Both the position numbers and the translations under genes were made by a program. A stretch of DNA of 47,334 nt from Longimicrobiaceae bacterium (GTDB lineage: Bacteria; Gemmatimonadota; Gemmatimonadetes; Longimicrobiales; Longimicrobiaceae), in contig DASVBS010000067.1 in NCBI GenBank assembly GCA_036375715.1, positions 1 through 47,334 on the forward strand, written 5' to 3'. The notes beneath the pieces are model-generated. The model saw nothing but the letters and a program-made list of their open reading frames with translations, was not told the DNA's origin and made no database searches. Positions 10,824-43,962 of the stretch are shown in pieces. The stretch's first letter is position 1, and each line of letters begins with the position of its first letter.

Positions 10824-11082
10824 AATTACGAATTACGAATTACGAATTACGGTTAACCGCATAGGCTACAGAGGGTTACACAGAGAGCGCAGAGGATTTG
10901 GGGCGCTGATCATTCGCGATAGGGCATGTGAGATCGGGGATGGTCTTCTCACCCAAAGTCCCACATTTGATCTAACCCGCATTTGATCTGACGCCGTCTT
11001 CCGCGCTCTCTGTGTAACCCTCTGTGGCCCCTGCGGTTAGGTTCTAGGGCTCGATGTAATTCGTAATTCGTAATTCGTAATC
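10824..11082. repeat. Inverted composite repeat A (TTACGAA heptamers plus CACAGAG module)
   Basis: This element fills the convergent gap between the TPR protein and the TonB-dependent receptor. Its left arm has TTACGAA repeated 3.7 times (10826-10851), then GGTTAACCGC and a CAGAGGGTTACACAGAGAGC block (10870-10889). The right arm is the near reverse complement: GCTCTCTGTGTAACCCTCTG (about 11005-11024), CTGCGGTTAG and three ATTCGTA units (11059-11079). The centre (10900-11000) contains ATTTGATCT twice. The right edge overlaps the stop codon of the receptor gene. The arms could form a long RNA hairpin that terminates both genes. No transposase or target-site duplication is visible. Confidence 0.8.
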
Positions 11083-14607: not shown

Positions 14608-14770
14608 CGACGAACTACGAACTACGAATTACGGGTGGTTGCCAGGTTTGCAGCCAACCTCCAGGCGCGCCGGCGCTGTCCCACGCAGTCGTTAGGTCCG
14701 GAAGGCGACCCGCCAGCTCGGCCTCTACTCGACTGGCAACTCCGTAATTCGTAATTCGTAATTCGTAATT
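14608..14770. repeat. Inverted heptamer repeat B between convergent genes
   Basis: The left arm has degenerate heptamers (CTACGAACTACGAATTACGG, 14615-14634) and then GTTGCCAG (14638-14645). The right arm has CTGGCAAC (14733-14740) and three ATTCGTA units (14747-14767). The arms are inverted, so an RNA across the region could fold into a stem with a loop of about 90 nt. It starts right after the PIG-L stop and ends 5 bp before the hexosaminidase stop. The CACAGAG module seen in the other copies is missing here. Confidence 0.75.
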
Positions 14771-14775
14771 CCTCC

Positions 14776-25341: not shown

Positions 25342-25462
25342 CGAGGACTCCTGTCGGTCGGTGGGGGAGGAGGGCTCCCGACAACTGCGCTCCGGAAAGA
25401 GCGGCAGGTAGATGGCGACAGCTCGGGAGGGCTGGAGTGTCGCCTGCGTCACCCTGCGCCTA

Positions 25463-25474
25463 AAACGTACGTTT
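25463..25474. promoter_or_regulatory. 12-bp perfect palindrome, candidate operator
   Basis: AAACGTACGTTT is a perfect palindrome in the 250-bp divergent gap between the metalloprotease and the sugar-isomerase-like gene. Its position, 118 bp before one start and 122 bp before the other, suits a regulator site, but no matching regulator or second copy was noticed. Confidence 0.3.
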
Positions 25475-25591
25475 GTCAAGGCGCTCGGCGAGGCGTCGGC
25501 CTCGAGCGGGAAATGCTGGATTTTCGCGCCGCACCGTCCCAGACTAAGAGGAAGATCCTACCCACTCCCAACCCCCAGGCGAGATCCTGCG

Positions 25592-26470
25592 ATGCGGCGT
25601 AGACAATTCCTTCGTTCCGGGGTCGCGGCAGGAGCCACGGCCCTCGGCGCCCTGAAACTTTCCCCTGTCGAGGCCCTGGCCGAGGAGATGCGCATGACCA
25701 CCGGTTCCGGTTCGGCGGGCGAGATCAAGCAGTCGGTATGCAAGTGGTGCTATCCGGACATCCCGCTCGACGAGTTTGCCGCCGCGGTCAAGCAGATCGG
25801 CATACAGTCAGTGGAGCTGCTCTCCCCGGACGACTTTCCTATCCTGAAGAAGCACGGCCTGATCTGCGCAATGGTGAACGGCCCCAGCGCAATCAACAAC
25901 GGTTGGAATCGCCTGGAGAACCACGACCGTTTCGTCCCCGCCTTCGAGGAGCGCATCCGCCAGGTGGCGGAGGCCGGTTTCCCCAACGTGATCTGCTTCT
26001 CCGGCAACCGGGACGGGATGGACGACGAGGAGGGGCTGGAGAACTGCGTGGTGGGGTTGCGGCGGATCCTTCCCACCGCGGAGCGCTACGGCGTGACCAT
26101 CTGCATGGAGCTGCTCAACAGCAAGGTCGACCACCCCGACTACATGTGCGATCACACCGCCTGGGGGGTCGAGCTGGTGAAGCGGCTCGACTCAGAGCGC
26201 TTCAAGCTGCTCTACGACATCTACCACATGCAGATCATGGAGGGGGATGTCATCCGCACGATCCGCGAGAATCACCAGTACATCGCGCACTACCACACCG
26301 CCGGTAATCCCGGCCGCCACGAGCTCGACGAGTCCCAGGAGCTCTACTATCCCGCCATCATGCGGGCCATCAAGGAGACCGGCTTCCAGGGTTACGTGGC
26401 GCAGGAGTTCGTGCCCACGCGGGAGCCGCTGGTGTCGCTGGCGGAGGCGTATCGGGCGTGTGATGTGTGA
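25592..26470 (+). CDS. Tat-exported TIM-barrel sugar isomerase (hydroxypyruvate isomerase-like)
   Basis: From ATG 25592 the product has 292 residues and begins with the Tat-type signal RRRQFLRSGVAAGATALGA. The rest is a xylose-isomerase-like TIM barrel close to the hydroxypyruvate isomerase group. Expected metal ligands are E173 (CMELLNSK), D209 (LYDIYHMQ), H235 (AHYHTAGNPGR) and E272 (QEFVP). The family interconverts aldoses or ketoses and hydroxypyruvate; here the enzyme is apparently exported folded to the periplasm, where an isomerase substrate is less obvious. It may act on an oxidised or cyclic sugar. A CAAGGTGA repeat array begins 6 bp after its stop codon. Confidence 0.85.
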   Translation: MRRRQFLRSGVAAGATALGALKLSPVEALAEEMRMTTGSGSAGEIKQSVCKWCYPDIPLDEFAAAVKQIGIQSVELLSPDDFPILKKHGLICAMVNGPSAINNGWNRLENHDRFVPAFEERIRQVAEAGFPNVICFSGNRDGMDDEEGLENCVVGLRRILPTAERYGVTICMELLNSKVDHPDYMCDHTAWGVELVKRLDSERFKLLYDIYHMQIMEGDVIRTIRENHQYIAHYHTAGNPGRHELDESQELYYPAIMRAIKETGFQGYVAQEFVPTREPLVSLAEAYRACDV

Positions 26471-26475
26471 GGGGG

Positions 26476-26661
26476 CAAGGTGACAAGGTGACAAGGTGAC
26501 AAGGTGACAAGGTGGCAAGGTGGCAAGGTGACAAGGTGACAAGGTGAGGGGCGGGGCAGGCTCGCCTGTACCGGCAGGCCGAAGGCAATCTGGATTCCGG
26601 CAGCTTCGTTCATCCGTGCACCCGTTCACTTGTCACCTTGTCACCTTGTCAGCCTGTCACC
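26476..26661. repeat. CAAGGTGA octamer array with inverted copies
   Basis: Nine tandem copies of CAAGGTG(A/G) run from 26476 to 26547. About 80 bp later the reverse complement appears as TCACTTG, TCACCTTG, TCACCTTG and TCAGCCTG (26626-26656). An RNA crossing the region could pair the two arrays into a hairpin of more than 25 bp. It fills most of the gap between the sugar isomerase and the adenylate cyclase. The unit length of 8 is not a codon multiple and unit-to-unit differences are few, so recent slippage expansion is likely. No spacers are present, so it is not a CRISPR array. Confidence 0.85.
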
Positions 26662-26748
26662 CCCTACCCGGCCCCCCACCGCCGTCCTCCTTGTCTCCAG
26701 CAGGCTGCCGACCAATCTTACACCCAGCCTCCCGCCACCCCTCCGCAC

Positions 26749-29019
26749 ATGGGAAGCTCCACTCCGTCGCAGCGTCGGCAGCTGGTCGCCGTCTGGTTCG
26801 CGGACATCGTGGGCTTCAGCGACCTCGCCTCCGCCAACGAAGATGATGCCGTCCGGCTGGTCGACGCCTTCCAGGCCTGCGCCTCCGAGCACGTGCAGCG
26901 CCAGGGCGGGCGCATCGTCAAGTACGTGGGCGATGCAGCGCTGGCGGAGTTCCATAGTACCGAGCAGGCGGCCCACTCGGCCTGCGACCTCGTTCAGGAT
27001 TTCGTGACGCGCTTTGGCGCCCAGCTCCGCGTAGGACTCCACGTTGCGGACGTCGCCGTCGGCAAGGACGAGGATCTGCTGGGCGACGGGGTGAACCTCG
27101 CGGTGCGGCTGCAGGCGGAGGCGGATCCGGGCGAGGTGGTGGTCAGCGAGGATGCCTGGCGCCAACTGCGGCAACGCGAGGGGTTCACCTGGGAGGAGAT
27201 CGGCGAACGCCGCGTGCGCGGGCAGGTGGAGCCGGTGAGGCTCTTCCGCGTGCGTCTAGCGGAGGAGCCGGTCGTGCCTTCCGAGCCCCGTCCGCCCGAC
27301 GCCCTCGACCGCGCCCGCCGCGGTTTCCGACGCCGCGGCGGCTCGCGCCTCCGCCTGCCGGACGCGCGACGGATGACGGTGGGAATCGCGACCGCCGTGC
27401 TCATCGGTGTTGCCGGGCTCGCAATCAGGGCGCGATCCGATGGATGGCTCGCCGCCCTGGGCGGGTATGGCGGCTCCTCCGACCCTTCCGCGGACAGCCT
27501 CGCCGACATTCCTTCCTACGATCCGACCCGCATCGCAGTCCTCTACTTCGACGACTACAGCGACGACCAGAGCCTCGGTTACATGGCCAGTGCCGCGACA
27601 GAGGCACTGATCAATTCCCTGGACGACGTGGAGGGGCTGACCGTCGTCCCGGAGGTCGCGGTCAAGCCTTTCCGTCACAGCGACATTCCACTGGACTCCA
27701 TCATCTTCGCCCTGAAGGTCGGGACCGTCATCGACGGGAACCTGACCAGGTCGGGCGATCGCATCCGTGTGACGGCGCAGCTGATCGACGGCAACTCCGG
27801 CGAGCAACTGGGCAGCGGCAGGCTGGACTACGTTGGCACCGACGTGCTCGAGCTGCAGGAGAAGGTGGTCGACCTGCTCGGCAGGGTGCTTCGCTCCCAG
27901 CTGGGGCGCGAGATCCGGATGCGGGAGATCGAGCGCTCGACGGATAGCCCGCGCGCGTACGAAGCATTGATGCGGGCGGAATCGTACCGGGAGGAATATC
28001 AGCGGCTGAGGCGATGGGACGACGAAGCCGCTCGGCGCGCCCTGCATCGGGCCGACACCATGGTGGCTCGCGCAGAGTCGCTCGATCCCCGGTGGGCGGA
28101 GCCCGTGATCCGGCGAGCCTGGTACCTGCGGGATCTTTCCATTCTGGAGGGACCGCTTCCGGGATATCTGGATGACTACTGGAGTGGGCAGGCGCTCACG
28201 CACGCCGAGCGCGCGGTAGCCCTCGACGGCGCGGCGGCGTACGAGATTCGTGGACTGCTTCGGTTCGGTCTGGCGATGAATGCGACGGGGGAGGAGCGCC
28301 AGCGACTGTTCAGTCAAGCGGAGGCCGATTTGAGGGAGGCCACGGCACTCGACGAGAGCCGCACGGTGGCGTGGGTGAAGTTGAGCGAACTGCTCGTAAG
28401 CCAGGGACGCTTCTCCGAGGCCGTCCTGGCGTCCGAACGGGGAAGTCGGGCAGACGCCTTCCTGAGCAACAACGTCGACGCCCTTCACCAGGCCTATTAC
28501 AGCGCTCTGCAGATTGGAGCCACCGAAGAGGCGAACGATCTATGTTTGCAGGGCAGGGTGCGCTTCCCCACCTCCGCCGACTTCGTGCTCTGCCGCCTCT
28601 TCGCGTTGGCGTCCTTCCCCGAAGTCGAGCCTGACCTCGCGCACGCCCAGGCGCTGGTGGACACGCTTGCGCAGCTCGTTCCACAGGACGATCAGAGCGT
28701 GTTTCGTGCTTACGGTATCATGCTCAGCGCCGAGGTCGCAGCTCGTGCGGGCCTGCGCGACAGCGCGGAAGCGCTAATTCGTCAGTCCCGCTCGGTAAAT
28801 GATTTCCCTATGCTCAGCTATAACGAGGCGCACGCGAGGCTCTTGCTCGGCGAGCAGCAGGAGGCCGTGCAGCTCCTCGAAAAGTGGCTCGAAGTCGATC
28901 CGGACACAGCGTATCTGGCCGGCGACTGGTGGTTCGAAGGGCTGCACGACAACTCCCGCTTCCGCGCGCTCCTGGGCCGCCACGACCCCCGGTTAATACC
29001 CGGGTCGCGGCCACGCTAG
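26749..29019 (+). CDS. Class III adenylate cyclase with TolB-like and TPR regions
   Basis: The ATG at 26749 starts a 756-residue protein right before the cyclase domain; upstream in-frame codons fall inside the repeat array. The catalytic domain (about 10-170) shows metal ligands D19 (WFADIVGFS) and D62 (KYVGD), the adenine-selecting K58, and GDGVNLAVRL (112-121) with N116 and R120. One transmembrane segment follows (about 209-227). The outside part begins with a TolB/FlgO-like domain (about 258-375, RIAVLYFDDYSDDQ) and continues with TPR-like helices to the end. It is likely a membrane cAMP-forming sensor with the cyclase inside and the repeats in the periplasm. Its TAG stop shares a CTAG with the stop of the convergent gene. 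Confidence 0.9.
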   Translation: MGSSTPSQRRQLVAVWFADIVGFSDLASANEDDAVRLVDAFQACASEHVQRQGGRIVKYVGDAALAEFHSTEQAAHSACDLVQDFVTRFGAQLRVGLHVADVAVGKDEDLLGDGVNLAVRLQAEADPGEVVVSEDAWRQLRQREGFTWEEIGERRVRGQVEPVRLFRVRLAEEPVVPSEPRPPDALDRARRGFRRRGGSRLRLPDARRMTVGIATAVLIGVAGLAIRARSDGWLAALGGYGGSSDPSADSLADIPSYDPTRIAVLYFDDYSDDQSLGYMASAATEALINSLDDVEGLTVVPEVAVKPFRHSDIPLDSIIFALKVGTVIDGNLTRSGDRIRVTAQLIDGNSGEQLGSGRLDYVGTDVLELQEKVVDLLGRVLRSQLGREIRMREIERSTDSPRAYEALMRAESYREEYQRLRRWDDEAARRALHRADTMVARAESLDPRWAEPVIRRAWYLRDLSILEGPLPGYLDDYWSGQALTHAERAVALDGAAAYEIRGLLRFGLAMNATGEERQRLFSQAEADLREATALDESRTVAWVKLSELLVSQGRFSEAVLASERGSRADAFLSNNVDALHQAYYSALQIGATEEANDLCLQGRVRFPTSADFVLCRLFALASFPEVEPDLAHAQALVDTLAQLVPQDDQSVFRAYGIMLSAEVAARAGLRDSAEALIRQSRSVNDFPMLSYNEAHARLLLGEQQEAVQLLEKWLEVDPDTAYLAGDWWFEGLHDNSRFRALLGRHDPRLIPGSRPR

Positions 29020-29730: not shown

Positions 29731-29977
29731 GCAGAGGAAGGAGTGTGAATTGCGAATTGCTGGACGGCAATTTTGATTTTTGCTTGTATCCTCACCTGAT
29801 GAGCGCGTCATGCTGAGCAAAGCGAAGGATCGCAAGCCGAAACCGTGCCTTCCGGCGATCCTTCGCTGTCGCTCAGAATGACATTGCCCGCATTACCCAA
29901 TTCAAAATTACAATTCAGAATTGAGCGGCGGTTATCCGCAATTCGTAATTCGTAATTCGTAATTCGTAATTCGTAAT
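29731..29977. repeat. Composite repeat C with five ATTCGTA heptamers
   Basis: This region follows the 3' end of the sialidase-like gene. Five exact ATTCGTA units occupy 29941-29975, ending 10 bp before the stop codon at 29985. At the far side are GCAGAGG (29731-29737) and degenerate GAATTGC units (29747-29760), the expected opposite arm. Between them lie a separate palindromic element (29807-29882) and AT-rich sequence. The 480-bp gap from 29505 to 29984 holds no convincing gene. Confidence 0.7.
29807..29882. repeat. Palindromic GTCATTCTGAGCG-type element (REP-like)
   Basis: GTCATGCTGAGCAAAGCGAA at 29807-29826, continuing GGATCGC, is the imperfect reverse complement of GCGATCCTTCGCTGTCGCTC at 29855-29874, continuing AGAATGAC. 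Together they form a stem of about 27 bp with a 21-nt loop. The sequence matches a palindrome widely scattered between genes in many bacterial phyla, in which GTCATTCTGAGCG is followed by AGCGAAG and GATC. It lies nested inside repeat C. Confidence 0.75.
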
Positions 29978-31170: not shown

Positions 31171-31430
31171 GGAATTACGGATTACGAATTACGAATTTTG
31201 GCATTCGGGAAATTGAAACCACAGAGGTCACGGAGGACGGCGCAGAGGTCGTAGAGGTTTGGCTCTGCCTGGTGAAGAGCGATAACATTTAATCCATTGT
31301 TAATAAATAACTTAATAGATATACGACTTGTATTCGATCTGAATGTTATCATCAGACTTCCTTCCTCTGCCCTGTGTGCAAACCACCATGACTTCTGTGG
31401 TTTGCCAGTAATTCGTAATTCGTAATTCGC
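31171..31430. repeat. Inverted composite repeat D with AT-rich centre
   Basis: The left arm (31171-31252) has GATTACGAATTACGAATTTT, then ACCACAGAGGTCACGGAGGA and GCGCAGAGG. The right arm (31366-31430) is its approximate reverse complement: CCTCTGCCCTGTGTG, ACTTCTGTGGTTTGCCAGTA and then three heptamers. The centre (about 31285-31355) is markedly AT-rich for this genome, with TTGTTAATAAATAACTTAAT. The element fills the gap between the epimerase stop and the sialidase-like start, both on the minus strand, so it may block read-through or, through its AT-rich centre, supply a promoter for the sialidase. Confidence 0.78.
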
Positions 31431-43827: not shown

Positions 43828-43962
43828 GCAGAAGGCGCAGAGTAGGAATGGCGCAATTCGTAATTCGTAATTCGTAATTCGTAATTCATAATTCGTAATT
43901 CCCAGCCCCTCTGCGGTCTCGGTGTCATCCTCCGCGGCCTCTGTGTTCCCGTCTAAGCGGTA
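43828..43962. repeat. Composite repeat E with six heptamers between convergent genes
   Basis: Six ATTCGTA-type units (one is ATTCATA) run from 43856 to 43897. They are preceded by GCAGAAGGCGCAGAG (43828-43842) and followed by CTCTGCGGTCTCGGTG and GCGGCCTCTGTG (about 43919-43945), the reverse complement of the CACAGAG module. It fills the gap between the quinoprotein and ABC permease stops and probably acts as a bidirectional terminator. Confidence 0.75.

What the first reader, a model, noticed from the sequence alone, without database searches (positions are those of the whole stretch)
26476..26661. CAAGGTGA array able to pair with its own inverted copies
Nine octamers are followed 80 bp later by four inverted ones. 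The two blocks could form a long imperfect stem in RNA or cruciform DNA between the sugar isomerase and the adenylate cyclase. Copy number changes by slippage would alter the hairpin and thus cyclase expression, a possible phase-variation-like switch for cAMP signalling.
Basis: partly seen in the sequence, partly recalled or inferred. Interest (0 to 1): 0.5.

Follow-up and report, generated by a model that had tools for sequence, protein, structure and literature searches.

The report
Inverted octamer arrays, empty hairpin cassette
The repeat pair is one of dozens of gene-less copies in this genome of an intergenic hairpin element whose gene-carrying forms, found in several bacterial phyla, enclose a small four-helix-bundle gene like that of ribosomal-RNA intervening sequences, so it is probably a piece of little-known selfish DNA and not a switch for the neighbouring cyclase.

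Summary
In detail: nine CAAGGTGA (26476-26547), 81 bp, four inverted units (26629-26661), far beyond chance and able to pair (-102.6 kcal/mol, z -5.4). It is not special to the cyclase. The genome has 39 places with such octamers; 24 are inverted pairs, all with the G-rich arm on the left. The octamer also occurs in Chloroflexi, Planctomycetes, Bacteroidetes, Acidobacteria, Cyanobacteria. Of 6 PF05635 genes (four-helix-bundle, '23S rRNA intervening sequence protein') found in those loci, 5 lie between inverted octamer arrays. This generalises: 68 of 83 distinct PF05635 genes have inverted arms around them (6 of 420 mismatched pairs, 0 of 20 PIN genes, 1 of 102 shifted positions), mostly 7-8-nt tandem repeats whose unit differs from cassette to cassette. 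At one site in a genus, full, decayed, empty and gene-less states coexist. The anatomy is that of a 23S rRNA intervening sequence (stem, S23 gene in the loop, heptamer repeats), but outside rRNA. I read the window's pair as a gene-less member. The cAMP phase-variation idea has no support. How the cassette moves is unknown; reverse transcriptase and RAYT are not required.

The parts
26476..26547 (+). 5' arm: nine tandem octamers CAAGGTGA (two are CAAGGTGG), G-rich strand on +
26548..26628 (.). 81-bp middle without a gene; no PF05635 remnant found
26629..26661 (-). 3' arm: about four inverted octamers (TCACCTTG on +), two exact
25412..26470 (+). neighbour: xylose-isomerase-like TIM barrel protein (PF01261); the array starts 5 bp after its stop
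26749..29019 (+). neighbour: class III nucleotide cyclase domain (PF00211) with TPRs; start codon chosen by eye, a TTG at 26638 inside the arm is the longest-frame alternative
10824..11081 (.). second inverted pair in the window, other unit: (AATTACG)4 at 10824-10851 and its inverse at 11056-11081, the same heptamer that flanks a PF05635 gene on contig C76 of this genome

Best explanation
The two blocks are the arms of a gene-less intergenic hairpin element. The class to which it belongs is a cassette: two inverted arms, usually of 7-8-nt tandem repeats with the G-rich strand in the 5' arm, around one gene for a PF05635 four-helix-bundle protein (the S23/IVP protein of 23S rRNA intervening sequences). 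Shown: the association of arms with the gene, different arm sequences in different cassettes, presence/absence and decay of one cassette at one site, and the same octamer around the gene in other phyla. Inferred: that the window's pair derives from such a cassette or is multiplied by the same process; that the transcribed arms fold and are cut by RNase III as in rRNA intervening sequences, so that an insertion near a gene is tolerated; that the four-helix-bundle protein binds the hairpin nucleic acid and helps the cassette to spread; and that the element is selfish or neutral for the cyclase. Unit number and unit sequence change by slippage and replacement without a regulatory role.
For: Own genome: 83 exact 16-mers, 116 with up to one mismatch; 39 places, 24 inverted pairs, 24 of 24 with the CAAGGTGA arm left. 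Both PF05635 genes of the own genome lie between inverted tandem arrays, one of them the heptamer of the window. Flank test: 69 of 84 rows with inverted match >=16, which is 68 of 83 distinct genes because L258 and L328 are the same gene; against 6 of 420 cross pairs, 0 of 20 PIN genes, 1 of 102 shifted positions, 1 of 687 ORFs of 100-200 aa in 400 kb of the own genome. Arm periods among the 69 rows: 7 in 46, 8 in 8, 10 in 2, none clear in 13; left arm G>C in 58 of 69, p 8e-9. One site in a genus: full in G079, G259, G260, G200:C74, decayed in G097, empty in G258, G261, G262, G263, gene-less heptamer palindrome on G200:C92, other genes in G253. dN/dS 0.03-0.24 in four gene comparisons. In 160 kb of G102, whose 6 fetched cassettes all have arms, no other 7/8-nt array was found, so the arms come with the gene.
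Against: No PF05635 remnant in any gene-less place of the own genome examined. Four single-contig genomes with PF05635 (G137, G111, G094, G191) have no 7/8-nt array in 100 kb each, like four without it, so gene-less arrays do not simply follow the gene; two of four cassettes fetched lack arms. 15 of 84 rows fail the test. Orthologous arms show 0 and 2 compensatory changes against 1 and 5 broken pairs, so selection on pairing is not shown. No target-site duplication was seen at the one site. In the Nostoc slot octamers arise by replacement of units inside a fixed slot, and pairing there is no better within than between species (median 6 and 6, p 0.07), which fits local turnover better than insertion.
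Confidence: 0.6

Rival explanations
1. Locally grown repeats: G-rich tandem arrays arise by slippage and ectopic copying at both borders of intergenic regions, with a composition polarity (G-rich 5' side, C-rich 3' side). Inverted pairing is a by-product, and PF05635 genes are separate elements that share this surrounding.
For: Nostoc slot: 20 of 20 G>C left and C>G right while units differ and pairing is weak; no gene remnants in the own genome; heptamer repeats of this type are known in Xanthomonas and Nostoc without a link to mobile elements (PMC4692102, passages and discussion).
Against: Inverted arms around PF05635 genes far above controls, also non-periodic arms (13 of 69 rows), and in a genome where other such arrays were not found in 160 kb (G102).
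Confidence: 0.25
2. Functional bidirectional terminator or mRNA 3'-end hairpin kept by the host; the arms stabilise transcripts or stop read-through between neighbouring genes.
For: Arrays often start within a few bases of a stop codon and fill the spacer; convergent neighbours 13 of 34 against 29 of 130 in the background; some middles hold a terminator-like hairpin (by eye).
Against: Divergent neighbours in 5 of 34; no terminator hit in the window's pair; sites are lost and gained within a genus.
Confidence: 0.08
3. Slippage switch for the cyclase: octamer number sets hairpin strength and so cAMP signalling.
For: A stem that pairs in RNA lies between isomerase and cyclase; heptamer number in the Coxiella intervening sequence does vary between strains (PMC4990558, passages).
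Against: 39 places beside unrelated genes; no promoter hit; no strain data; Rehm et al. found phase variation unlikely for the related heptamers (PMC4692102, discussion).
Confidence: 0.03

Closest known systems
23S rRNA intervening sequence (IVS) with S23p/IVP open reading frame, e.g. Coxiella burnetii (PMC4990558)
   Same: Terminal inverted repeats (28-bp stem there), one PF05635-type gene in the loop, about 430 nt in all, tandem heptamers upstream of the gene whose number differs between strains, decay of the gene, sporadic distribution (passages read).
   Different: Here the cassettes stand between protein genes, in several copies per genome, with arms of tandem 7-8-nt units that differ from cassette to cassette; the window's copy has no gene. 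RNase III cutting was not tested here.
Intergenic heptamer arrays of Xanthomonas (GGGAATC) and Nostoc (GGGGA(C/T)T), PMC4692102; TAACTGA arrays of Beggiatoaceae, PMC4679880
   Same: Short tandem units, intergenic, dispersed; 70 convergent inverted pairs in X. campestris; G-rich strand downstream of genes; units shared by distant phyla.
   Different: No PF05635 link in the passages read (terms S23, four helix, intervening: 0 hits); Rehm et al. report no association with mobile elements; unit here is an octamer.
MITE and REPIN/RAYT elements
   Same: Gene-less palindromic intergenic elements with a gene-bearing relative.
   Different: No fixed terminal sequence, no target duplication seen, no transposase in the cassette; RAYT (PF01797) absent from 15 of 30 cassette genomes including this one.
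Avd of diversity-generating retroelements
   Same: Distant relative of the cassette protein (NCBIfam DivGenRetAVD E 4e-4 and 1e-6, below its cut-off; PMC10053308 passages).
   Different: No reverse transcriptase in the cassette; PF00078 absent from 26 of 30 cassette genomes including this one.

Membership tests
IVS-like PF05635 cassette | Inverted arms that can pair | tested here: met
IVS-like PF05635 cassette | PF05635 gene between the arms | tested here: not met
   81-bp middle, no remnant; hence filed as gene-less derivative by likeness, not as a full member
IVS-like PF05635 cassette | Same arm unit flanks a PF05635 gene elsewhere | tested here: met
   L097, L146, L153, L161, L185
23S rRNA intervening sequence | Located inside an rRNA gene | tested here: not met
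   between two protein genes
23S rRNA intervening sequence | Excision by RNase III | not testable with these tools
   needs RNA work
MITE | Target-site duplication and fixed terminal inverted repeats | tested here: inconclusive
   arm units differ between cassettes of one genome; no duplication seen at the single site compared
REPIN/RAYT | RAYT (PF01797) in the genome | tested here: not met
   0 matches in G000
Diversity-generating retroelement | Reverse transcriptase PF00078 | tested here: not met
   0 matches in G000
Phase-variable simple sequence repeat | Copy number varies among isolates and alters expression | not testable with these tools
   one genome per species held

The most novel reading that the evidence does not exclude
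There is a widespread, barely described class of mobile hairpin cassettes in bacteria: one four-helix-bundle gene inside a stem that is recognised by structure and not by sequence. It has no transposase or reverse transcriptase of its own. Ribosomal intervening sequences are its rRNA branch, and the puzzling 7-8-nt tandem arrays scattered through genomes of many phyla, the window's octamers among them, are its empty shells.
Probability: 0.35. Interest if true: 0.85.

Novelty: new variant of a known kind. Interest (0 to 1): 0.6.

Why it matters
Dispersed heptamer and octamer arrays have been reported without an agreed origin, and the intervening-sequence protein PF05635 has no known function. 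A strong, checkable link between the two turns both into one question: how does a cassette made of a hairpin and a small four-helix-bundle protein spread? It also warns against reading such arrays as phase-variation switches of the gene beside them.

Tried and rejected
cAMP switch: rejected as main reading. Reverse-transcriptase-driven spread in trans as a general rule: 26 of 30 cassette genomes have no PF00078. RAYT-driven spread: 15 of 30 have no PF01797. Gene remnants in the gene-less middles: none. Compensatory changes in orthologous arms: too few to claim selection. Insertion into pre-existing host arrays: disfavoured by G102 and G191, where sampled DNA holds no other 7/8-nt array but cassettes have arms. 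Rfam: only microRNA families far below their gathering scores, taken as hairpin look-alikes. Orthologous site of the window in the family: only G001 keeps the isomerase, without array.

Slips found and mended: the gene position in L230 was set wrongly, because I thought loci were turned to the gene's strand; one search repeats the count with the right place (L230 then scores 17). L258 and L328 hold the same gene of G102, so 69 of 84 rows are 68 of 83 distinct genes. Rows dropped: L244 (flank of 139 bp); in the PIN control 20 of 30 loci with full flanks were used. In one search, 38 of the 117 octamer loci, lying in 37 genomes, were given. The cassettes are not all independent: L230/L231, L316/L323 and L318/L325 are orthologous pairs.

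Full report
What is there. Window 26476-26547 holds nine octamers CAAGGTGA, two of them with a final G; after 81 bp, 26629-26661 holds about four inverted units, two exact. By a simple period score the window reaches 58, against 9-14 in 12 first-order Markov copies. As RNA the stretch 26471-26670 folds at -102.6 kcal/mol, z -5.4, 0 of 200 shuffles as good. The pair fills the spacer between a xylose-isomerase-like protein and a class III cyclase with TPRs.

It is a family. The genome (4.37 Mb, 87 contigs) has 83 exact two-unit matches and 116 with up to one mismatch. I fetched 38 places besides the window; the 39 clusters include 24 inverted pairs, and in 24 of 24 the CAAGGTGA arm is on the left. 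Middles range from 60 to 303 bp and look unrelated by eye. Exact two-unit matches occur in 0 of 40 relatives of the family and order, yet a scan of a collection of 84,980 species genomes for three units stopped at its limit with 117 stretches from Chloroflexi, Planctomycetes, Bacteroidetes, Acidobacteria, Cyanobacteria and others. In a 447-kb sample of the own genome (window included), 34 tandem arrays of period 6-10 were found, 30 of them outside called genes, and all of period 7 or 8. The commonest is the heptamer AATTACG, which also stands in the window as an inverted pair at 10824-11081 and elsewhere.

The lead. In a Gemmataceae locus (L153) the two octamer arms enclose an open frame that reads as a four-helix-bundle protein of the 23S rRNA intervening sequences, PF05635/TIGR02436. 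Among the 117 foreign loci, 34 have an inverted partner within 900 bp; the middles fall into two classes, 28 of 7-115 bp and 6 of 326-481 bp. A profile built from cassette proteins finds 6 PF05635-like genes in these loci, 5 between octamer arms on both sides, one (L156) with an arm on one side only. In the own genome both PF05635 genes lie between inverted tandem arrays: one between GAATTAC arrays, the heptamer of the window, one between GAAGCCAG-type arrays. Of 37 genomes reached through octamer loci, 35 have PF05635; in the window's phylum it is 105 of 200.

The test. For each PF05635 gene I took the best ungapped inverted match between 450 bp on either side. Of 85 rows given, 84 had usable flanks and 69 reached a score of 16 (68 of 83 distinct genes, since L258 and L328 are the same gene), against 6 of 420 mismatched pairs, 0 of 20 PIN genes from the same set of genomes, 1 of 102 shifted positions and 1 of 687 ORFs of 100-200 aa in 400 kb of the own genome. 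The rows are 32, 29 from a draw of 200 genomes of the phylum, best gene per genome, 20 copies in four genomes, all 20 positive, one of them a repeat, and 4 more, 2 positive. The arms have period 7 in 46, 8 in 8, 10 in 2 and no clear period in 13 of 69 rows; the left arm has G>C in 58 of 69. Units differ from cassette to cassette, also within one genome. So what is shared is pairing, mostly short period, and strand polarity, not sequence. Three pairs of these cassettes are orthologous, so the counts are not fully independent.

Mobility. The G079 cassette sits between two convergent genes. In its genus (10 genomes searched) the same slot is full in G079, G259, G260 (partly N) and on G200:C74; decayed in G097; empty, with stop codons 10-50 bp apart by eye, in G258, G261, G262 and G263; filled by other genes in G253; and on contig G200:C92, perhaps a second strain or a faulty contig, it holds a gene-less heptamer palindrome of another unit. 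No target duplication is evident. The gene evolves under constraint: dN/dS 0.235, 0.031, 0.102 and 0.194 in four comparisons; the second rests on a saturated dS.

Evidence that cuts the other way. Gene-less places of the own genome keep no trace of the gene. Four single-contig genomes with PF05635 have no 7/8-nt array in 100 kb each, as four without it, so amplification of gene-less arrays is a separate event. Orthologous arms show few compensatory changes (0 and 2) and some broken pairs (1 and 5). At the Nostoc slot that holds the octamer in Nostoc mirabile, all 39 genomes searched have a match to the query, not all at this slot; of the 20 loci fetched, 20 are G-rich left and C-rich right, but the units differ widely, exact octamers are in 2 of 20, and pairing within a species is not better than between species. 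There, turnover in place is the simpler reading.

Against the switch. The octamer arrays neighbour unrelated genes; divergent neighbours are 5 of 34, against 23 of 130 adjacent gene pairs in the background. No promoter or terminator hit. The only family relative with the isomerase, of 20 searched, has no array and no cyclase after it. No second strain is held, so copy-number change at this site is untested.

What is known. The Coxiella intervening sequence is bounded by inverted repeats forming a 28-bp stem, carries an S23p gene in the loop, is cut by RNase III, and has tandem heptamers before the gene, two or three by strain (PMC4990558, passages). Rehm et al. describe heptamer arrays in Xanthomonas with 70 convergent inverted pairs, find no link to mobile elements and think phase variation unlikely (PMC4692102, passages and discussion). 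MacGregor describes TAACTGA arrays in distant phyla and suspects horizontal spread without a known mechanism (PMC4679880, passages). PF05635 resembles Avd (PMC10053308, passages); the solved relatives found by sequence are 2gsc and 2rld. Searches that could show a paper tying PF05635 to short tandem arrays outside rRNA listed none that I recognised as such; I saw most of those papers only in the listing, and the library covers open-licence papers only.

Judgement. The window's feature is best read as a gene-less hairpin element of the same class as the PF05635 cassettes, which look like intervening sequences placed between genes. Association and presence/absence are shown; descent of this particular pair from a cassette, RNase III processing and the role of the protein are inferred. 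Reverse transcriptase and RAYT are not general helpers, so the means of spread is open.

Noticed in passing
window 10824-10851, 11056-11081, 14743-14771, 29940-29977, 31172-31197, 31408-31429, 43855-43901: Seven arrays of the heptamer family AATTACG, several as inverted pairs around spacers; the same heptamer flanks a PF05635 gene on contig C76 of this genome.
   Followed up: partly
L231:2593-2666 and many places in genus g40: A repeat of about 75 bp, matching on both strands, is dispersed through the genomes of this genus, next to but distinct from the PF05635 cassette.
   Followed up: no
L117 and L129: In one Acidobacteria bin octamer arms enclose further inverted arms of other units, a nested hairpin made of several short-repeat blocks.
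   Followed up: no
L198 (G000:C31:267000-270000): The second PF05635 cassette of this genome appears to sit between pilB- and pilT-like genes (named by eye from the translation).
   Followed up: no
L257, L258 (same gene as L328), L331, L333: Some cassettes have arms of about 50-80 nt that pair but show no tandem period, so the tandem units are not essential.
   Followed up: partly
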